NCBI RefSeq assembly: GCF_021026375.1
Contig: NZ_JAJNDB010000001.1
Span: forward strand, 186,001 to 250,000
Direction of reading: 5' to 3'
Length of the DNA stretch: 64,000 nt
Source: Actinomycetospora endophytica
GTDB lineage: Bacteria; Actinomycetota; Actinomycetes; Mycobacteriales; Pseudonocardiaceae
The notes beneath the pieces were generated by a model, which did no database searches, had not been told where the DNA came from, and saw only the letters and a list, made by a program, of their open reading frames with translations. The position numbers and the translations under genes were made by a program. Below are positions 25,212-38,597 of this stretch, piece after piece; within the stretch, counting starts at the first letter, position 1, and each line of letters begins with the position of its first letter.

Positions 25212-26147
25212 CTACGAGCCCCCGTCCGCGGCGGCCCGCGCCCGCGCCCGTTCCCGCTGTTCCTCGAACCGCACGGCCTGGGCGTCGATCCGGCCGAGGA
25301 ACGTGGCGAGCTCGGTACGGGCCTGCTCGCCCTCGGCGTCGAGGCCCTCGAGCTCGAAGACCTTCCAGTGCCGCAGCAGGGGCCACACCACCTCGTCGTG
25401 GTGGACACGCAGGTCATAGATTCCGGTGTGGGCGATCTGGACCGCCTTGCGGGTGAAGCCCGGGATGATCACGCCCGGCATCGCGAACCCGACGACCTCG
25501 TCGGTGATGGCCCGCAGGGTCGCGGTCGGCGCGATCTCGAGGGCCGCGCTCGTCAGGTTCCGGTAGAAGACCATGTGCAGGTTCTCGTCCGTGGAGACCC
25601 GGGTGAGCAGCTTCTCGGCGACGGGATCCCCCGCGAACCGGCCGGTGTTGCGGTGCGACACCCGGGTGGCGAGCTCCTGGAAGGAGACGTAGGCGAGCAC
25701 GTGCAGGATCGGCTTCTCCGCCGAGTCGAACCCGGACTGCATCACCTTCATCCGCGCCTGTTCCAGCTCGTCCGGGTCGACGCCGCGCGTCACGAGCAGG
25801 TAGTCACGGATGCAGTAGGCGTGTCGTGCCTCCTCGGCGGTCCACCGGTGCACCCACGTCCCCCAGGCCCCTTCCCGGCCGAAGGCCCGCTCGATCTCCC
25901 GGTGGTAGCTGGGCAGGTTGTCCTCGGTGAGCAGGTTGACCTCGAGCGCCGTGCGGGCCGCCGGCGACAGGGCAGACTGCTCGGGGTCCCAGGCCTGCCC
26001 GCCGAGGTCGGCGAAGTCGCGGCCGAGACTCCACGGGATGTACTCGTGGGGCATCCAGTCCTTCGCGGCCCCGAGGTGCCGGTCGAGGTTCTCGGCGACC
26101 ACGGGCTCGAGGTCGAGGAGCAGGCGGGTGCTGTCCAGGATCGTCAT
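25212..26147 (-). CDS. Acyl-ACP desaturase (DesA-like diiron)
   Basis: 311-residue soluble desaturase of the stearoyl-ACP type. It introduces a double bond in an acyl chain carried by ACP, using reduced ferredoxin and O2. Diiron ligands fall in LLTEDNLPSYH, the RWTAEEARHAYCIRDY helix, SFQELATRVSHRN and the second EExxH-like motif STDENLHMVFYRN. The length matches mycobacterial DesA proteins. The ATG at 26147 has GAGG upstream; the frame is open further but into non-family sequence. It is divergent from the EEP-family gene, with a 14-bp palindrome in the promoter region. Confidence 0.93.
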   Translation of the reverse strand: MTILDSTRLLLDLEPVVAENLDRHLGAAKDWMPHEYIPWSLGRDFADLGGQAWDPEQSALSPAARTALEVNLLTEDNLPSYHREIERAFGREGAWGTWVHRWTAEEARHAYCIRDYLLVTRGVDPDELEQARMKVMQSGFDSAEKPILHVLAYVSFQELATRVSHRNTGRFAGDPVAEKLLTRVSTDENLHMVFYRNLTSAALEIAPTATLRAITDEVVGFAMPGVIIPGFTRKAVQIAHTGIYDLRVHHDEVVWPLLRHWKVFELEGLDAEGEQARTELATFLGRIDAQAVRFEEQRERARARAAADGGS

Positions 26148-34175: not shown

Positions 34176-34400
34176 ATGAGCGACCGACCGTTCGAGCAGT
34201 CGATGTACCCGCACTACGCCGCCGAGAGCGCCGATGCGCGAGACAATCCGGTCGGCCTCGGGGAGCACCTCGCCGAGGACACGGCGGGCGCGGGCACGCA
34301 CGACCCGGAGGAGCTCGGCGGCGCCGATCTCGCCGATGAGCTGGAAGGTCGGCCCACTCCGCCGTTCCGGACCCCGCACCCGGACCACGAGTCCTCCTGA
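34176..34400 (+). CDS. Small acidic hypothetical protein
   Basis: 74 residues, rich in Asp/Glu and His, with no membrane segment or known domain: MSDRPFEQSMYPHYAAES, a Leu-rich acidic middle and a Pro/His tail. GGAG stands five bases before the ATG. It is probably disordered. It ends 13 bases before the stop of the convergent gene at 34414. Confidence 0.55.
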   Translation: MSDRPFEQSMYPHYAAESADARDNPVGLGEHLAEDTAGAGTHDPEELGGADLADELEGRPTPPFRTPHPDHESS

Positions 34401-34413
34401 CCCGGCGCGACGG

Positions 34414-34929
34414 TCACGATTTCCGTTGTCGGACCTGTGACCCCAGGAACGTCCCCGCGATGACCGCGAGCAGCTCGTCCCGAGCTGCGCGATGGGACTG
34501 CGACGGCCCCGAGCCCGCCACTCCGAAGACCGCCTCCGTGCCGTCGCTCTTCTCGATGCCCAGCGTCGGGGTGCTCGTCCACGGGGCAGCGCTGATGGGG
34601 CGCGCCCCGACGATCTCGCCCGCTCCCCGACCGGTGCACTCCGCTCCGCCCGGGTGTGTGCCGACGATGTAGACGGGTGAGCCGTCGGAGACCGCGCAGC
34701 CGTACTGGAGGAGCCAGTCGACCAGGCCGAGGCTCCAGGGCTCGAACAGGACCCGGTGGCTGGTCGCCACCAGCTCGCCGTCGCTGGCCAGCCCCACGGC
34801 GGCCTGCGCTCGGACGAGCTCCCGTTCGTCGACGAGACAGCACCCGGTGGCTGTGCCGGGGACCACACATTCCGAGATCCACGAATCGAAGTCGGACACC
34901 GTCCCCACGGTGCGCGATGTCGTCGCCAT
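34414..34929 (-). CDS. Hypothetical protein, unrecognised
   Basis: 171 residues with no family I recognise. The translation looks protein-like: a mixed alpha/beta N-terminal half with DSWISECVVPGTATGCCLVD, the strand ATSHRVLFEPWSLGLVDWLL, and a C-terminal helix RDELLAVIAGTFLG. Four Cys occur, three close together near the N-terminus. There is no signal peptide. It lies downstream, on the same strand, of the lysine-rich microprotein and its hairpin, but 320 non-coding bases separate them. Confidence 0.6.
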   Translation of the reverse strand: MATTSRTVGTVSDFDSWISECVVPGTATGCCLVDERELVRAQAAVGLASDGELVATSHRVLFEPWSLGLVDWLLQYGCAVSDGSPVYIVGTHPGGAECTGRGAGEIVGARPISAAPWTSTPTLGIEKSDGTEAVFGVAGSGPSQSHRAARDELLAVIAGTFLGSQVRQRKS

Positions 34930-35250
34930 CGTCTGCGCACGTTCGGAGAATGGACGATGAATACGGAGTCGTCGCCATTCGGATCTCGCCGCCCGTACGC
35001 GCGAGGCGTGTGGCCCCGATGTCGCAAGATCTGAGACTCATGGCGACTTTCTCGGCCCGGAGATCTGACCGAACCGCCGCCTCGTGCCGCCGCGAGGCCG
35101 ACGCCCACGGCCACGTCGGACTGTGGGGCGGGCAGTGGCGGACCCCCGGCGAGAGCACGGGGCCGATCGCCTGCTTCCCGGAGCCGCCTCGCATCATCGA
35201 GCCCGCAGGCGCGTTCGCGGCTGATCGTGGGATCCCGGATGATGACCCAC
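34930..35250. other. About 320 bases without a supported gene
   Basis: Open frames exist on the plus strand but lack a Shine-Dalgarno and domain-like sequence. On the minus strand this would be the leader of the 34414-34929 gene, beyond the hairpin at 35251-35281. Confidence 0.4.
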
Positions 35251-35281
35251 GCCGCGCCCCCGTCAGGAGCGGGGGCGCGGC
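35251..35281 (-). terminator. Strong GC hairpin after the lysine-rich microprotein
   Basis: GCCGCGCCCCC and GGGGGCGCGGC form a perfect 11-bp stem with a 9-base loop, 34 bases beyond the microprotein stop. There is no T-run, as is usual for actinobacterial terminators. Its place makes it the terminator (or an attenuator) of the minus-strand transcript. Confidence 0.65.
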
Positions 35282-35315
35282 GCTGCCCATCCCGTGAGGT
35301 GGCGGGCGGCTCGCG

Positions 35316-35366
35316 TCACTTCTTCTTCTTGCCCTTCTTCTTCTTGTCCTTCTTCTTCTTCCCCAT
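35316..35366 (-). CDS. 16-residue lysine-rich microprotein
   Basis: The minus strand reads MGKKKKDKKKKGKKKK then TGA: twelve Lys out of sixteen, in three tetralysine blocks separated by Asp and Gly. It has an unusually good ribosome-binding site, AGGGGGTGATC (35371-35381), ten of eleven bases matching the full anti-16S complement AGGAGGTGATC, four bases before the ATG. A -35/-10 pair lies 40-68 bases upstream and a perfect hairpin 34 bases downstream, so this is a complete small transcription unit. All lysines are AAG. It may bind nucleic acid or anionic lipid, or act as a ribosome-stalling leader; no function is known to me. Confidence 0.6.
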   Translation of the reverse strand: MGKKKKDKKKKGKKKK

Positions 35367-35401
35367 GGATGATCACCCCCTCCCCTGCTCTCGACAACGC
35401 C

Positions 35402-35447
35402 GGTCAAGGTATCGTTGACCACTATCTCGGTCAAGGAGTCGTTGACA
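35402..35447. promoter_or_regulatory. Tandem GGTCAA-N7-TTGAC dyads over the divergent promoters
   Basis: Copy A (35402-35420) is GGTCAA-GGTATCG-TTGACC, perfect 6-base arms. Copy B (35429-35447) is GGTCAA-GGAGTCG-TTGACA, one arm base different. They are 27 bases apart centre to centre. On the minus strand TTGACC (35434-35429), 17 bases and TACCTT (35411-35406) form a good promoter for the microprotein, with the two dyads covering the -35 and -10. The HTH protein starting at 35451 is the obvious candidate binder. Confidence 0.6.
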
Positions 35448-35450
35448 TCC

Positions 35451-35699
35451 GTGTCTCAGAAGAAGGCATTCGCCCAGCTCAGGAAGGCGCTCGACGCACT
35501 CGAGTCCGCCGATGGGCCGCGCGAACGGCTCAGCGCCGTTCGTCGGTTGCGCCAGACGGCCGAGGAGCTCGAGGGCGACCTCGTCGAGGAGGCGCGATCG
35601 GCCGGTCTGCGCTGGTCCGACATCGGCGAGCTCTACGGGACCAGCAAGCAGGGCGTGCAGCAGCGGTTCCGGCGGCGCATCGGGAAGGCCGCCGAGTAG
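35451..35699 (+). CDS. Small HTH protein, probable autoregulator
   Basis: 82 residues. The N-terminal half is a charged helix pair (AFAQLRKALDALESADG, ERLSAVRRLRQTAEELEGDL). The C-terminal half is a clear helix-turn-helix, ARSAGLRWSDIGELYGTSKQ followed by GVQQRFRRR, like those in sigma-4-type or Clp-N-type actinobacterial proteins. The start is uncertain: GTG at 35451 has AAGGAG twelve bases upstream, and in-frame TTGs exist at 35415 and 35442. It is divergent from the lysine-rich microprotein with tandem dyads between, and convergent with the channel-like gene. Confidence 0.75.
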   Translation: MSQKKAFAQLRKALDALESADGPRERLSAVRRLRQTAEELEGDLVEEARSAGLRWSDIGELYGTSKQGVQQRFRRRIGKAAE

Positions 35700-35702
35700 G
35701 CG

Positions 35703-36785
35703 TCAGCGGCGGACCCGGCGTCGGGTGAGCGGGGCGCGGCGGAAGGGGATCGGTCGATCGCCCGACCACGGTGCGGTGGGGGCGCGACACAGCGAGGCGA
35801 AGCGGAGCAGGACGGCGTCGTAGTTCACGCGCCAGCCGGCGAAGTCGCGCCATGCCTGGTCGCGGTCGGGCCGCAGCGGCGCGCCGGCCGCGCTCAGCTC
35901 GCGACACGCGTCGTCGAACTCGTCCCTGGTGATCGAGACGGGGTCGGTGGGCGACGGCTCGGGGTCGTAGGGCATCAGGTAGAAGTCGCCGACGCGCTGC
36001 AGTGCCAGGTAGCCCGACCGCAGGCAGAGTTCGGCCGCGGGTCGGCGTCCCAGGTCGAGGGTCGACGAGGTGAGCGCGGCGGCGTCCAGGACGGCGCCGG
36101 CGGCCGTCACCCATGAGCGGTCCGGCTGCGGTGATCGGAACAGGACGAGGCTGGGTGCCGTGCTGTGGGTCTCCTCGATGTCGGCGAACCAGCGCTGCCA
36201 CTCCGCCCAGAACCCGTCCAGTTCCTCGAGGCCGTCGATCCGGGCCAACCGCGCGAGGAGGGCGGCGGCCGACGGAGGCCGGCCCGCCTGGGTCTCGAGT
36301 GCGGTGACCATCACCTCGCGCCGGGAGAACGACGCGTAGATCGACGGCAGGTACGACACGAGCAGCGCCAACAGGGCGAGCCCCAGGACCGCCTCGGCGA
36401 ACACCAGCGCCGCCGTCGACACCGTCGCGGGCGCTCGGAAGCCCAGGGTCAGCAGCGACGACCCGCTCTCCAGGAATGCTCCGTCCCACGACTGACCGGT
36501 GGCCCGGAAGATCGCCATGAACCCGGCCAGCACCAGCGCCAGCCACACGACCGGCAGGCAGAGCAGGCTCAGCGGCGCGTAGAGCGCGAGCAGGCGCTCC
36601 CGCCGCGCGCTGTCACGCAGCCGGCCGACCGGCTCGAACACCAGACCTACCAGCACGAACACCCACCGGGTGATGAACACCGGCGTCGCCCGGGGCACGG
36701 CCAGGGTCTGCGCGGCGGAGAGCGCGGTCGCCGCCACGACCGCCGCACCCACCAGCCCGAGGAGCACTGCCAGCGCCGTCTGCAC
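35703..36785 (-). CDS. Ion-channel-like membrane protein
   Basis: 360 residues: four hydrophobic helices in the first 150 (start VLLGLVGAAVVAATALSAAQ), then a soluble C-terminal domain of about 210 residues. Between helices three and four, SGSSLLTLGFRAP resembles the pore helix and filter of ion-transport-2 channels (T-x-G-F). The soluble part has W-rich helices (ELDGFWAEWQRWFADIEETH) and could be a gating or sensor domain. The ion selectivity is not predictable. The only near neighbour is the small HTH gene, whose stop is three bases from this stop. Confidence 0.65.
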   Translation of the reverse strand: MQTALAVLLGLVGAAVVAATALSAAQTLAVPRATPVFITRWVFVLVGLVFEPVGRLRDSARRERLLALYAPLSLLCLPVVWLALVLAGFMAIFRATGQSWDGAFLESGSSLLTLGFRAPATVSTAALVFAEAVLGLALLALLVSYLPSIYASFSRREVMVTALETQAGRPPSAAALLARLARIDGLEELDGFWAEWQRWFADIEETHSTAPSLVLFRSPQPDRSWVTAAGAVLDAAALTSSTLDLGRRPAAELCLRSGYLALQRVGDFYLMPYDPEPSPTDPVSITRDEFDDACRELSAAGAPLRPDRDQAWRDFAGWRVNYDAVLLRFASLCRAPTAPWSGDRPIPFRRAPLTRRRVRR

Positions 36786-36983
36786 CGGAGCATCGTGCCC
36801 GTCTGGCGCCGCATCGTGCCGGGACGAGCCGCCGCCGGCTGACCCTCAGTCCCGGCGCCGGTGATCGACGACCGGAGGGCCGACCTTCGGGGCCACGTCG
36901 CCTCGCGGCGAGACCCGGGCAACCGTGTCGCCCCGGACCTGACGCTCCTGGCCGCGCTGCGGATCGGGCAGCGGCACGGTGGT

Positions 36984-37223
36984 TCAGGCCGCGGCGATGA
37001 TGTAGAGCGAGTACACGAGGATCGCCGCGACGGCGGCGAAGCAGGCCCCGGCCACGGCGGTGCTCATGGCGACCCCGAGGCCCCGGCCGTTCTGCCCGCC
37101 GTCCAGGGCGCGACGACGGGAGCTGAGCCCGATCGCGCCGAGGGCGAACAGGACGACCACGACGACGCCCACCGCCAGCGACACGACGCTGACCAGGCCC
37201 AGGGCCGCCCACTCGATCTTCAT
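36984..37223 (-). CDS. Small two-helix membrane protein next to PiT
   Basis: 79 residues with two hydrophobic helices (about 7-30 and 53-77) and a basic/polar loop SSRRRALDGGQNGRG between. It begins 25 bases after the phosphate transporter stop on the same strand, so it is likely co-transcribed. It may be a transporter accessory subunit; that is position-based inference. Confidence 0.7.
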   Translation of the reverse strand: MKIEWAALGLVSVVSLAVGVVVVVLFALGAIGLSSRRRALDGGQNGRGLGVAMSTAVAGACFAAVAAILVYSLYIIAAA

Positions 37224-37248
37224 CGCCGATGCTCCCCTTCGATGGGTG

Positions 37249-38379
37249 TCAGGCCGCTGCCGGGGCCGTCTGGTCGATCGACGGGACGTCGTTGACGTTG
37301 TCGGCAGTGACCGGATTGCGCTTCGACCACGCGTAGATCCCGCCCGACGCGGCGATCAGCACCACCGCGACCAGGATCGTGCCCAGCGGGCCCTTGCCCG
37401 CGGTCCACGCCGCGACGGCACCGACGGCGGCGGCGGCCGGCAGCGTCAGCACCCACGCGATGGCCATCTGCCCGGCGACACCCCACTGGACCTGGGCCAG
37501 CCGCCGGCCCGCGCCCGCCCCGAAGATCGAGCCCGTGCAGACCTGGGTGGTCGAGAGCGCGAAGCCGAGGTGGGCCGAGGCGAGGATGACGGTGGCCGAG
37601 GCGGTCTCGGCCGCGAAGCCCTGCCGCGTCTGGATGTCGCTGATCCGCTTGCCGAGGGTCTGGATGATCCGCCAGCCGCCCACGTAGGTCCCGAGCCCGA
37701 TGGCCACCCCGCAGGAGAGGATGACCCAGAACGGCGGCCCGGCGTTCGGCGAGAGGATGCCGGCGCTGATCAGGGTCAGCGTGATCACGCCCATGGTCTT
37801 CTGGGCGTCGCTGGTGCCGTGGGCCAGCGCGACCGTGGACGCGCTGAGAATCTGGCCGAAACGGAAGGTCGTCGAGATCGTCTCCGGATCGGACCGCTCG
37901 GTCATCCGGTAGGTCAGGTACGTCGCGATCAGGGCGATCAGCCCGGCGAGCAGCGGGGAGATCACCGCCGGCAGGACGATCTTCGAGATGACCGCGCCGA
38001 AGTTCACCGCGTCGGCACCGGCGGCGACGACGGTCGCGCCGATGAGGCCGCCGAACAGCGCGTGCGACGAGCTGGACGGCAGGCCGACCAGCCAGGTGAC
38101 GAGGTTCCACAGGATCGCTCCGACCAGCCCCGCGAAGATCACCACCGGGGTGATCTTCGCGTCGTCCACCAGGCCGTTGGAGATGGTCTTCGCGACCTCG
38201 ATCGAGAGGAAGGCGCCCACCACGTTGAGCACCCCGGCGACGGCGACCGCGACGCGCGGCGGCATCGCTCGCGTGGCGATCGACGTCGCCATCGCGTTGG
38301 CCGTGTCGTGGAAGCCGTTCGTGAAGTCGAAGGCGAGCGCGGTCACCACCACGGCGATCACGATCAGTGACACGGTCAT
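37249..38379 (-). CDS. PiT-family inorganic phosphate transporter
   Basis: 376-residue cation/phosphate symporter of the PiT (PHO-4) family. The duplicated signature is present: ALAFDFTNGFHDTANAMATS at the N-terminus and VALAHGTSDAQKTMGVITL in the second half, with GLPSSSSHALFGGLIGA and ASAHLGFALSTTQVCTGSIF as the paired loop motifs. About ten membrane helices. The ATG at 38379 starts the conserved region. No PhoU-like DUF47 gene, the usual partner, is adjacent; a small membrane protein follows instead. Confidence 0.95.
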   Translation of the reverse strand: MTVSLIVIAVVVTALAFDFTNGFHDTANAMATSIATRAMPPRVAVAVAGVLNVVGAFLSIEVAKTISNGLVDDAKITPVVIFAGLVGAILWNLVTWLVGLPSSSSHALFGGLIGATVVAAGADAVNFGAVISKIVLPAVISPLLAGLIALIATYLTYRMTERSDPETISTTFRFGQILSASTVALAHGTSDAQKTMGVITLTLISAGILSPNAGPPFWVILSCGVAIGLGTYVGGWRIIQTLGKRISDIQTRQGFAAETASATVILASAHLGFALSTTQVCTGSIFGAGAGRRLAQVQWGVAGQMAIAWVLTLPAAAAVGAVAAWTAGKGPLGTILVAVVLIAASGGIYAWSKRNPVTADNVNDVPSIDQTAPAAA

Positions 38380-38597
38380 CGGAATCCCCGCCCCCCGCAC
38401 GTCGCGGGCATCGGGCGAGGGATCCGCCCCGACGACGGCCCCTGGTGCCCGGGCCCGGTCCAGCCCGGTGGGCGAGAGTCTGCTTCCAGGGCGAAGTCCG
38501 GGTGACGCTCCTCTAGCTCCCGGTGAACACGGGATAACCGCAGATCACGGAATCGCACATCCGGCGGAATTGACGCTGCCGAATCGTCGCAGCGCAA

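What the first reader, a model, noticed from the sequence alone, without database searches (positions are those of the whole stretch)
35251..35451. Complete transcription unit for a 16-residue, 12-lysine microprotein
The minus strand carries MGKKKKDKKKKGKKKK with a ribosome-binding site matching the full anti-16S complement at ten of eleven bases, a -35/-10 pair at 17-base spacing upstream and a perfect 11-bp hairpin 34 bases downstream. A gene this short with every expression signal in place is unusual. It may be a nucleic-acid or membrane binding peptide, or a lysine-codon leader.
Basis: partly seen in the sequence, partly recalled or inferred. Interest (0 to 1): 0.75.

Follow-up and report, generated by a model that had tools for sequence, protein, structure and literature searches.

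The report
Conserved polylysine microprotein beside predicted repressor
A 16-residue, almost pure-lysine protein gene in this actinobacterium looks real: relatives of it recur in other genera, most of them beside the same small predicted repressor gene and its likely binding sites, so it belongs to a conserved family of very short genes whose job is still unknown.

Summary
MGKKKKDKKKKGKKKK (35316-35366, minus) has a strong ribosome-binding site and a 13-bp hairpin behind it. I catalogued 23 such microproteins in 23 genomes of four families of one order: 12-20 aa, net charge +8 to +12. Seventeen of the 23 lie divergent to a small helix-turn-helix gene, four beside Lsr2, one before polyphosphate kinase, one with neither. 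In a survey anchored on the regulator and blind to lysine, 14 of 21 strong regulator loci in another genus encode the microprotein; the other 7 encode a ~95-aa protein in its place. The shared promoter holds palindromes GTCAA-N7-TTGAC. That is the operator published for ClpC2, and the regulator's best solved relative is RelI, an antitoxin related to ClpC2. So the regulator kind is known; the polylysine product matched no family searched. Best reading: a self-repressed two-gene module that, when released, makes a polycationic disordered peptide which binds polyanions. Gene reality and divergent layout are well supported; the repressor's DNA binding is inferred; the peptide's function is a guess. 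Lysine-leader attenuation is unlikely; a toxin-antitoxin-like role is not excluded.

The parts
35316..35366 (-). polylysine microprotein gene, MGKKKKDKKKKGKKKK, net charge +11
   Evidence: sequence; 22 homologues catalogued
35371..35381 (-). ribosome-binding site AGGGGGTGATC (10 of 11 to AGGAGGTGATC)
   Evidence: sequence; duplex energy -25.3 kcal/mol with the 16S tail, the strongest of 23
35406..35411 (-). -10-like TACCTT of the microprotein promoter, inside the proximal palindrome
   Evidence: a TAnnnT lies in at least one palindrome of 23 of 25 HTH loci examined
35429..35434 (-). -35-like TTGACC, overlapping the distal palindrome; 17-base spacer
   Evidence: a TTGA -35 at 16-18 bases is present in 13 of 25 HTH loci, not in the other 12
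35403..35419 (.). operator-like palindrome 1, GTCAAGGTATCGTTGAC
   Evidence: same motif as the published ClpC2 operator CGTCAAC-n5-GTTGACG
35430..35446 (.). operator-like palindrome 2, GTCAAGGAGTCGTTGAC, 27 bases from the first
35250..35282 (-). hairpin, 13 perfect pairs, 7-base loop; likely transcript end
   Evidence: no T-run
35451..35699 (+). divergent small HTH protein (82 aa from GTG; an earlier TTG at 35415 is possible), predicted repressor of the ClpC2/RelI kind
   Evidence: profile match to RelI E 1.1e-10 and Rv2667 E 0.0012; alignment A1; tree

Best explanation
This is a self-regulated two-gene module. A small HTH protein of the ClpC2/RelI kind (35451-35699, plus) binds GTCAA-N7-TTGAC palindromes that cover promoter elements between it and the microprotein gene, so it represses both itself and the microprotein. 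When repression is lifted, a transcript of about 150 nt is made that ends at the GC-rich hairpin and is translated from a very strong ribosome-binding site into a 16-residue disordered peptide of charge +11. The peptide most likely acts by binding a polyanion, with nucleic acid (nucleoid or ribosome) first and polyphosphate second. Shown here: the gene, its conservation, the divergent layout, the palindromes and their overlap with -35/-10-like hexamers. Inferred from published work on ClpC2: dimer DNA binding and self-repression. Guess: the inducing signal, the disorder and the polyanion target.
For: Conservation: 23 microproteins in 23 genomes, four families, 12-20 aa, charge +8 to +12, lysine codons AAG 253 / AAA 7, synonymous GAC/GAT and GGC/GGT/GGG/GGA variation, stops TAG 12 / TGA 11: the peptide is kept while codons and stop vary. 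Regulator-anchored survey that did not look for lysine: 21 strong HTH loci in 62 genomes, 14 with the microprotein. All 21 have at least 2 exact palindromes. The HTH is the gene that recurs most often in the fetched neighbourhoods: 10 of 16 sources, 9 of the 15 that hold a free-standing microprotein. ClpC2 is shown by others to bind CGTCAAC-n5-GTTGACG, covering its putative -35 and -10, with a transcript suggested to be leaderless (PMC10030653 passages); RelI is the best solved relative of this HTH. Polyanion idea: composition; Lsr2 beside the gene in four f13 genomes (Pfam on one; N-terminus read in three, and in the DNA of the fourth); ppk1 141 bases downstream in one; polyphosphate is reported to bind polylysine and K/S/acidic stretches (PMC12345225 passages).
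Against: No expression, binding or phenotype data exist here. The module is sporadic: of 18 genomes of the window's genus only this one has the microprotein by pattern, and one other (G010) a strong HTH hit with a lysine-rich fused variant. In 7 of 21 HTH loci the microprotein is absent and a ~95-aa protein takes its place, so the HTH does not need it. Four microproteins stand beside Lsr2 without exact palindromes, and one (G175) has no HTH near. A -35-like hexamer at the right spacing is seen in only 13 of 25 HTH loci. RelI itself is reported to lack evidence of DNA binding and of inverted repeats upstream.
Confidence: 0.5

Rival explanations
1. Toxin-antitoxin-like module: the HTH, a relative of the RelI antitoxin, neutralises and represses a small toxic partner, which is the polylysine peptide (or the ~95-aa protein where that replaces it).
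For: HTH profile matches RelI at E 1.1e-10; RelI is a proven antitoxin (PMC13284704 abstract and passages). Sporadic distribution, swapped partner genes, HTH tree that places the window's copy with five copies of another genus (98/97), as for mobile addiction modules.
Against: Genes are divergent, not an operon. No RelS-like gene beside it: the HTH gene ends at 35699 and the convergent 360-aa ORF begins at 35703. Two ~95-aa proteins searched have no PDB match naming a toxin and no PADLOC family. A bare polylysine peptide has no evident fold or active site.
Confidence: 0.2
2. Secreted or cell-surface acting cationic peptide (signal or antimicrobial) with the HTH as its sensor.
For: Divergent regulator-plus-short-peptide layout resembles Rgg/SHP-type pairs (recalled, not tested); strong positive charge.
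Against: No hydrophobic stretch or signal-like sequence in the 23 peptides; no transporter-like or modifying-enzyme cluster stood out among genes recurring in the neighbourhoods, though those clusters were not all annotated.
Confidence: 0.1
3. Lysine-codon leader peptide that attenuates a downstream gene.
For: Short lysine ORF followed by a hairpin; in 3 of 21 g5 HTH loci a ~95-aa gene follows the microprotein.
Against: Next gene convergent in 4 of 13 loci with downstream sequence, window included (the script lists a fifth, L094, but a same-strand acyl-CoA-dehydrogenase-like ORF follows there). The four downstream genes given to Pfam are not recognised as lysine genes; the rest were not annotated. 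In the window 386 bases separate the gene from an ORF without a family.
Confidence: 0.05
4. The functional product is the RNA (small RNA with hairpin), the ORF being incidental.
For: The 80 bases behind the stop fold better than shuffles (z below -2) in 21 of 23.
Against: A perfect stem of 9 or more pairs is found in 13 of 23 only, with differing sequences, while frame, start, charge and ribosome-binding site are kept; no Rfam family at gathering score here, best weak hit E 0.18.
Confidence: 0.05

Closest known systems
ClpC2 (PMC10030653, passages read; that Rv2667 is ClpC2 is recalled)
   Same: Related HTH region; same operator motif GTCAA-N7-TTGAC, two copies over the promoter; in 13 of 25 HTH loci here a palindrome lies 2 bases from the chosen HTH start, as in clpC2.
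   Different: The HTH here is about 80-100 aa and shows no Clp_N domain; it has a divergent polylysine gene, of which a scan finds none in nine ClpC2-like loci.
RelI antitoxin of RelS-RelI (Rv2664; PMC13284704, abstract and passages read)
   Same: Short HTH protein related to ClpC2, profile E 1.1e-10.
   Different: RelI is encoded in an operon with RelS and is reported without inverted repeats; here palindromes are present, no RelS-like neighbour was seen and the partner is a divergent polylysine ORF or a ~95-aa protein.
Lysine-rich disordered stretches that bind polyphosphate (PASK-like, PMC12345225, passages read)
   Same: Composition rich in K with D and S.
   Different: There they are parts of larger proteins; here the stretch is the whole protein with its own promoter. 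Binding not tested.
CrsL (PMC12709188, outline and abstract read)
   Same: Very small disordered actinobacterial protein linked to transcription.
   Different: 5.7 kDa CarD partner; no sequence comparison made here.

Membership tests
ClpC2/RelI-type small HTH regulators | homologous HTH region | tested here: met
   RelI E 1.1e-10, Rv2667 E 0.0012 with profile A1; window protein alone 0.006 and 0.0029
ClpC2/RelI-type small HTH regulators | ClpC2 operator CGTCAAC-n5-GTTGACG at own promoter | tested here: met
   GTCAA-N7-TTGAC twice at 35403-35446 and at least twice in 21 of 21 g5 loci; the outer C/G and inner C/G of the published form vary
ClpC2/RelI-type small HTH regulators | binds that DNA and represses itself | not testable with these tools
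   needs EMSA and reporter assays
ClpC2 proper | Clp_N domain | tested here: not met
   no Pfam domain above cut-off in the window protein, whereas a ClpC2-like relative has Clp_N (L028)
RelS-RelI toxin-antitoxin system | RelS gene in an operon with the HTH | tested here: not met
   HTH gene ends at 35699, next ORF convergent from 35703; neighbours searched gave no RelS-like match
lysine leader/attenuator | downstream lysine gene under control | tested here: not met
   next gene convergent in 4 of 13 loci; four downstream genes scanned are not recognised as lysine genes
any named microprotein family | match in Pfam or PHROGs | tested here: inconclusive
   0 families for the one 20-aa member long enough to scan; the other 22 are under the tool's minimum length

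The most novel reading that the evidence does not exclude
Bacteria encode a dedicated family of free-standing polylysine proteins, 12-20 residues and among the shortest genes with their own promoter, repressor and transcript end, made on demand to neutralise or condense polyanions (DNA, ribosomal RNA or polyphosphate) in actinobacteria, and attached in different lineages to ClpC2/RelI-type repressors, to Lsr2 and to polyphosphate kinase.
Probability: 0.35. Interest if true: 0.85.

Novelty: new variant of a known kind. Interest (0 to 1): 0.66.

Why it matters
Genes this short are usually skipped by annotation, so a whole conserved family can be missed. Here the ribosome-binding site, regulator, operators and recurrence across four families make one such gene credible, and the published ClpC2 operator gives a direct handle for turning it on and finding what it does. 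If the peptide binds DNA, ribosomes or polyphosphate, it would be a minimal polyanion-binding protein under dedicated control.

Tried and rejected
Chance lysine tract: rejected by the control scans and by conservation. Phage or plasmid cargo: no DNA match of 34380-37300 in plasmids or of 35200-35720 in phages, no protein match for the HTH in phages, five distant HTH matches in plasmids (two opened: one lies in a longer CDS, one before a Clp_N gene), none for one g5 HTH or one ~95-aa protein, none in viral contigs. Wider spread: 396 phylum genomes gave 14 pattern matches in 13 genomes, of which only the window's is of this kind; two others are short lysine ORFs of 13 and 37 aa without a clear ribosome-binding site. 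The genome-contig scan gave 4 lysine-rich stretches, seen only in passing. The pattern searches fix the start and first lysines, so they miss variants; the regulator-anchored survey was made in one genus only. One search's first scan for lysine ORFs took only the first start of each frame and so missed one (L007); try every start. Structure: the HTH predicted alone (pLDDT 84, four helices) has no PDB fold match at E 0.001 or better. Insertion site: in two same-genus relatives only the 360-aa gene is shared, plus a weak 27-32% match. Dropped as ordinary before counting: L049, L061, L067. For G302 the catalogue script chose an upstream GTG (18 aa); the inner GTG gives 15 aa. Not in print: the listings of searches of the open-access library showed no paper on this peptide; that library omits most subscription journals.

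Full report
What is there. The minus strand of the window at 35366-35316 encodes MGKKKKDKKKKGKKKK. The ribosome-binding site pairs with the 16S tail at -25.3 kcal/mol, the strongest of the 23 genes compared. A hairpin of 13 perfect pairs begins 33 bases after the stop. The promoter hexamers TTGACC and TACCTT, 17 bases apart, would start a transcript about 32 bases before the ATG; a generic promoter scan does not pass them and the hairpin has no T-run. The window is 72.5% GC.

Is it chance. In the whole 7-Mb genome (AAR)4 occurs four times: three in this gene, one in a frame open for 452 codons. In 255,319 bases (the window and 15 loci, 14 of them fetched because they hold a homologue), both strands, 15 ORFs of 9-30 aa with at least 40% lysine were found and all 15 are this gene or its homologues. 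The same scan finds none in nine ClpC2-like loci, eight HTH loci without the gene, or four loci around a neighbouring gene in two same-genus relatives.

Homologues. A pattern with ribosome-binding site and lysine codons hit 4 of 249 genomes of the family; in genus g5 8 of 62 genomes, 7 of them microproteins and one an ordinary protein; a pattern without ribosome-binding site hit 9 of 397 genomes of the order against 1 for the reversed pattern, 8 being microproteins and one an ordinary ORF, and 13 of 396 genomes of the phylum against 4 for the reversed pattern, only the window's being of this kind. In genus g32 all 4 sampled genomes have it; the one genome of another genus of that family does not. 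With the regulator-anchored finds the catalogue holds 23 microproteins in 23 genomes: 12-20 aa, composed almost only of K, D, G and S after M-G/A, charge +8 to +12, each ending in at least three lysines before the stop. Lysine codons are AAG 253 and AAA 7; other codons vary synonymously; stops are TAG 12 and TGA 11. The 80 bases behind the stop fold better than shuffled copies (z below -2, single-base shuffles) in 21 of 23; a perfect stem of 9 or more pairs is found in 13 of 23. This is what selection on a peptide looks like.

The regulator. The microprotein gene is divergent to an ORF for a small HTH protein, 84 bases away from the GTG at 35451 or 48 from the TTG at 35415. Relatives in nine other loci align with invariant W, Y, KQ and QQRF positions. 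Searching 62 g5 genomes with that alignment gave 21 hits of at least 95 bits, one per genome, and then a gap to 51 bits. I then read what lies divergent to each, without requiring lysine beforehand: 14 of 21 have a lysine microprotein 61-117 bases from the HTH start, 7 of 21 have a protein of 93-106 aa instead, and in 3 of the 14 that protein family follows the microprotein. All 21 have at least two exact GTCAA-N7-TTGAC palindromes at this place. In 25 HTH loci (these 21, the window, two of f4, and G010) a TAnnnT lies in a palindrome in 23, and a TTGA hexamer 16-18 bases before it in 13, so the promoter reading is good for about half. In the window's genome there are three exact palindromes; two are these and the third lies within long ORFs of another contig; the reversed control gives one. 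So the regulator appears dedicated to this module. In a tree of 25 HTHs the window's copy falls in a supported set (98/97) with five g5 copies, away from the G010 copy of its own genus, whose long branch makes its place unsure; its ribosome-binding region GGGGGTGATCATCC is identical in G293 and G280. Horizontal transfer is likely. The partner labels need 6 changes on that tree against 10.0 in shuffles.

Neighbourhoods. In 16 fetched neighbourhoods the HTH recurs in 10, 9 of them with a free-standing microprotein. The next most frequent cluster, in 6 of 16 and at varying positions, looks like the very common short-chain dehydrogenases (recalled, not scanned); clusters of 4 are local synteny of the f13 genomes.

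What kind of regulator. No Pfam or NCBIfam family passes its cut-off and PADLOC has no hit; PHROGs gives an HTH family at 4.8e-8. The profile matches two solved proteins well: RelI (9sdc, E 1.1e-10) and Rv2667 (8ada, E 0.0012). RelI is the antitoxin of RelS-RelI, described as a short relative of the ClpC2 HTH (PMC13284704, abstract and passages). Rv2667 is ClpC2 (recalled). ClpC2 was shown to bind CGTCAAC-n5-GTTGACG over its own putative -35 and -10 and to repress itself, with a transcript suggested to be leaderless (PMC10030653, passages). That operator is the palindrome found here. In nine loci of relatives (L008, L011, L014, L020, L027, L028, L029, L031, L033) HTH genes of 235-271 aa carry the same pair; Clp_N was confirmed by Pfam in the one scanned (L028). 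DNA binding by the window's HTH is therefore a strong inference, not a result. The RelI paper reports no evidence that RelI itself binds DNA and no inverted repeats upstream, which counts against carrying the idea over blindly.

Other settings of the microprotein. In four f13 genomes it is divergent to an Lsr2 gene (Pfam on one of four; N-terminus MARKELVILTDDLDNSEI read in three, and in the DNA of the fourth), without exact palindromes. In one f10 genome it precedes polyphosphate kinase by 141 bases. In G175 no HTH is near. In G010, of the window's genus, the divergent ORF is a 160-aa coiled-coil-like protein that begins VGKNKKKAKSNG. A Dps/ferritin-like gene lies beyond the HTH in three related g5 loci (Pfam on one). 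These neighbours suggest, but do not show, a link to the nucleoid or polyphosphate.

Function. A leader peptide is unlikely because the next gene is convergent in 4 of 13 loci with held downstream sequence, window included; a fifth, L094, is listed so by the script but has a same-strand acyl-CoA-dehydrogenase-like ORF. An RNA function is unlikely because the hairpins differ while the frame is kept. A toxin-antitoxin-like role is possible because of RelI kinship, sporadic presence and swapped partners. A polyanion-binding peptide is my first choice on composition and neighbours; polyphosphate is reported to bind polylysine and K/S/acidic stretches (PMC12345225, passages). Iterated AAA is reported to lower expression more than iterated AAG (PMC4363877, start of abstract in listing), in keeping with the codon choice, though GC content alone would explain it.

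Novelty. The regulator belongs to a known kind. The polylysine product matched no family where it could be scanned (one of 23 long enough), and the listings of ten paper searches showed no report of it.

Noticed in passing
L108:1829-2113, L113, L115, L117-L120, L085:7213-7512: A ~95-aa protein family (AVDxAIxALR...LPxGL...DCHRAG...SARL) takes the microprotein's place, or follows it, behind the same palindromes; the two members scanned match no Pfam, PADLOC or NCBIfam family.
   Followed up: partly
L008, L011, L014, L020, L027, L028, L029, L031, L033: ClpC2-like genes with paired GTCAA-N7-TTGAC sites near the start codon, so the cassette's palindromes may also be read by ClpC2.
   Followed up: partly
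L099:7219-7732 (G010): In a species of the window's genus the divergent ORF is a coiled-coil-like protein with a lysine-rich N-terminus, as if the microprotein were fused.
   Followed up: partly
G286, G293, G282: Many GTCAATGATTCATTGAC-like sites in some g5 genomes away from the cassette; on G282 contig C3 a pair of sites recurs about 12 kb apart. Possibly another regulon.
   Followed up: no
window 25765-25832 +: Rfam ASdes hit (43.2 bits, above gathering), possibly sequence of a desaturase gene rather than an RNA.
   Followed up: no
window 37249-38400 -: PHO4-type phosphate transporter gene about 1.9 kb from the microprotein; any phosphate link was not examined.
   Followed up: no
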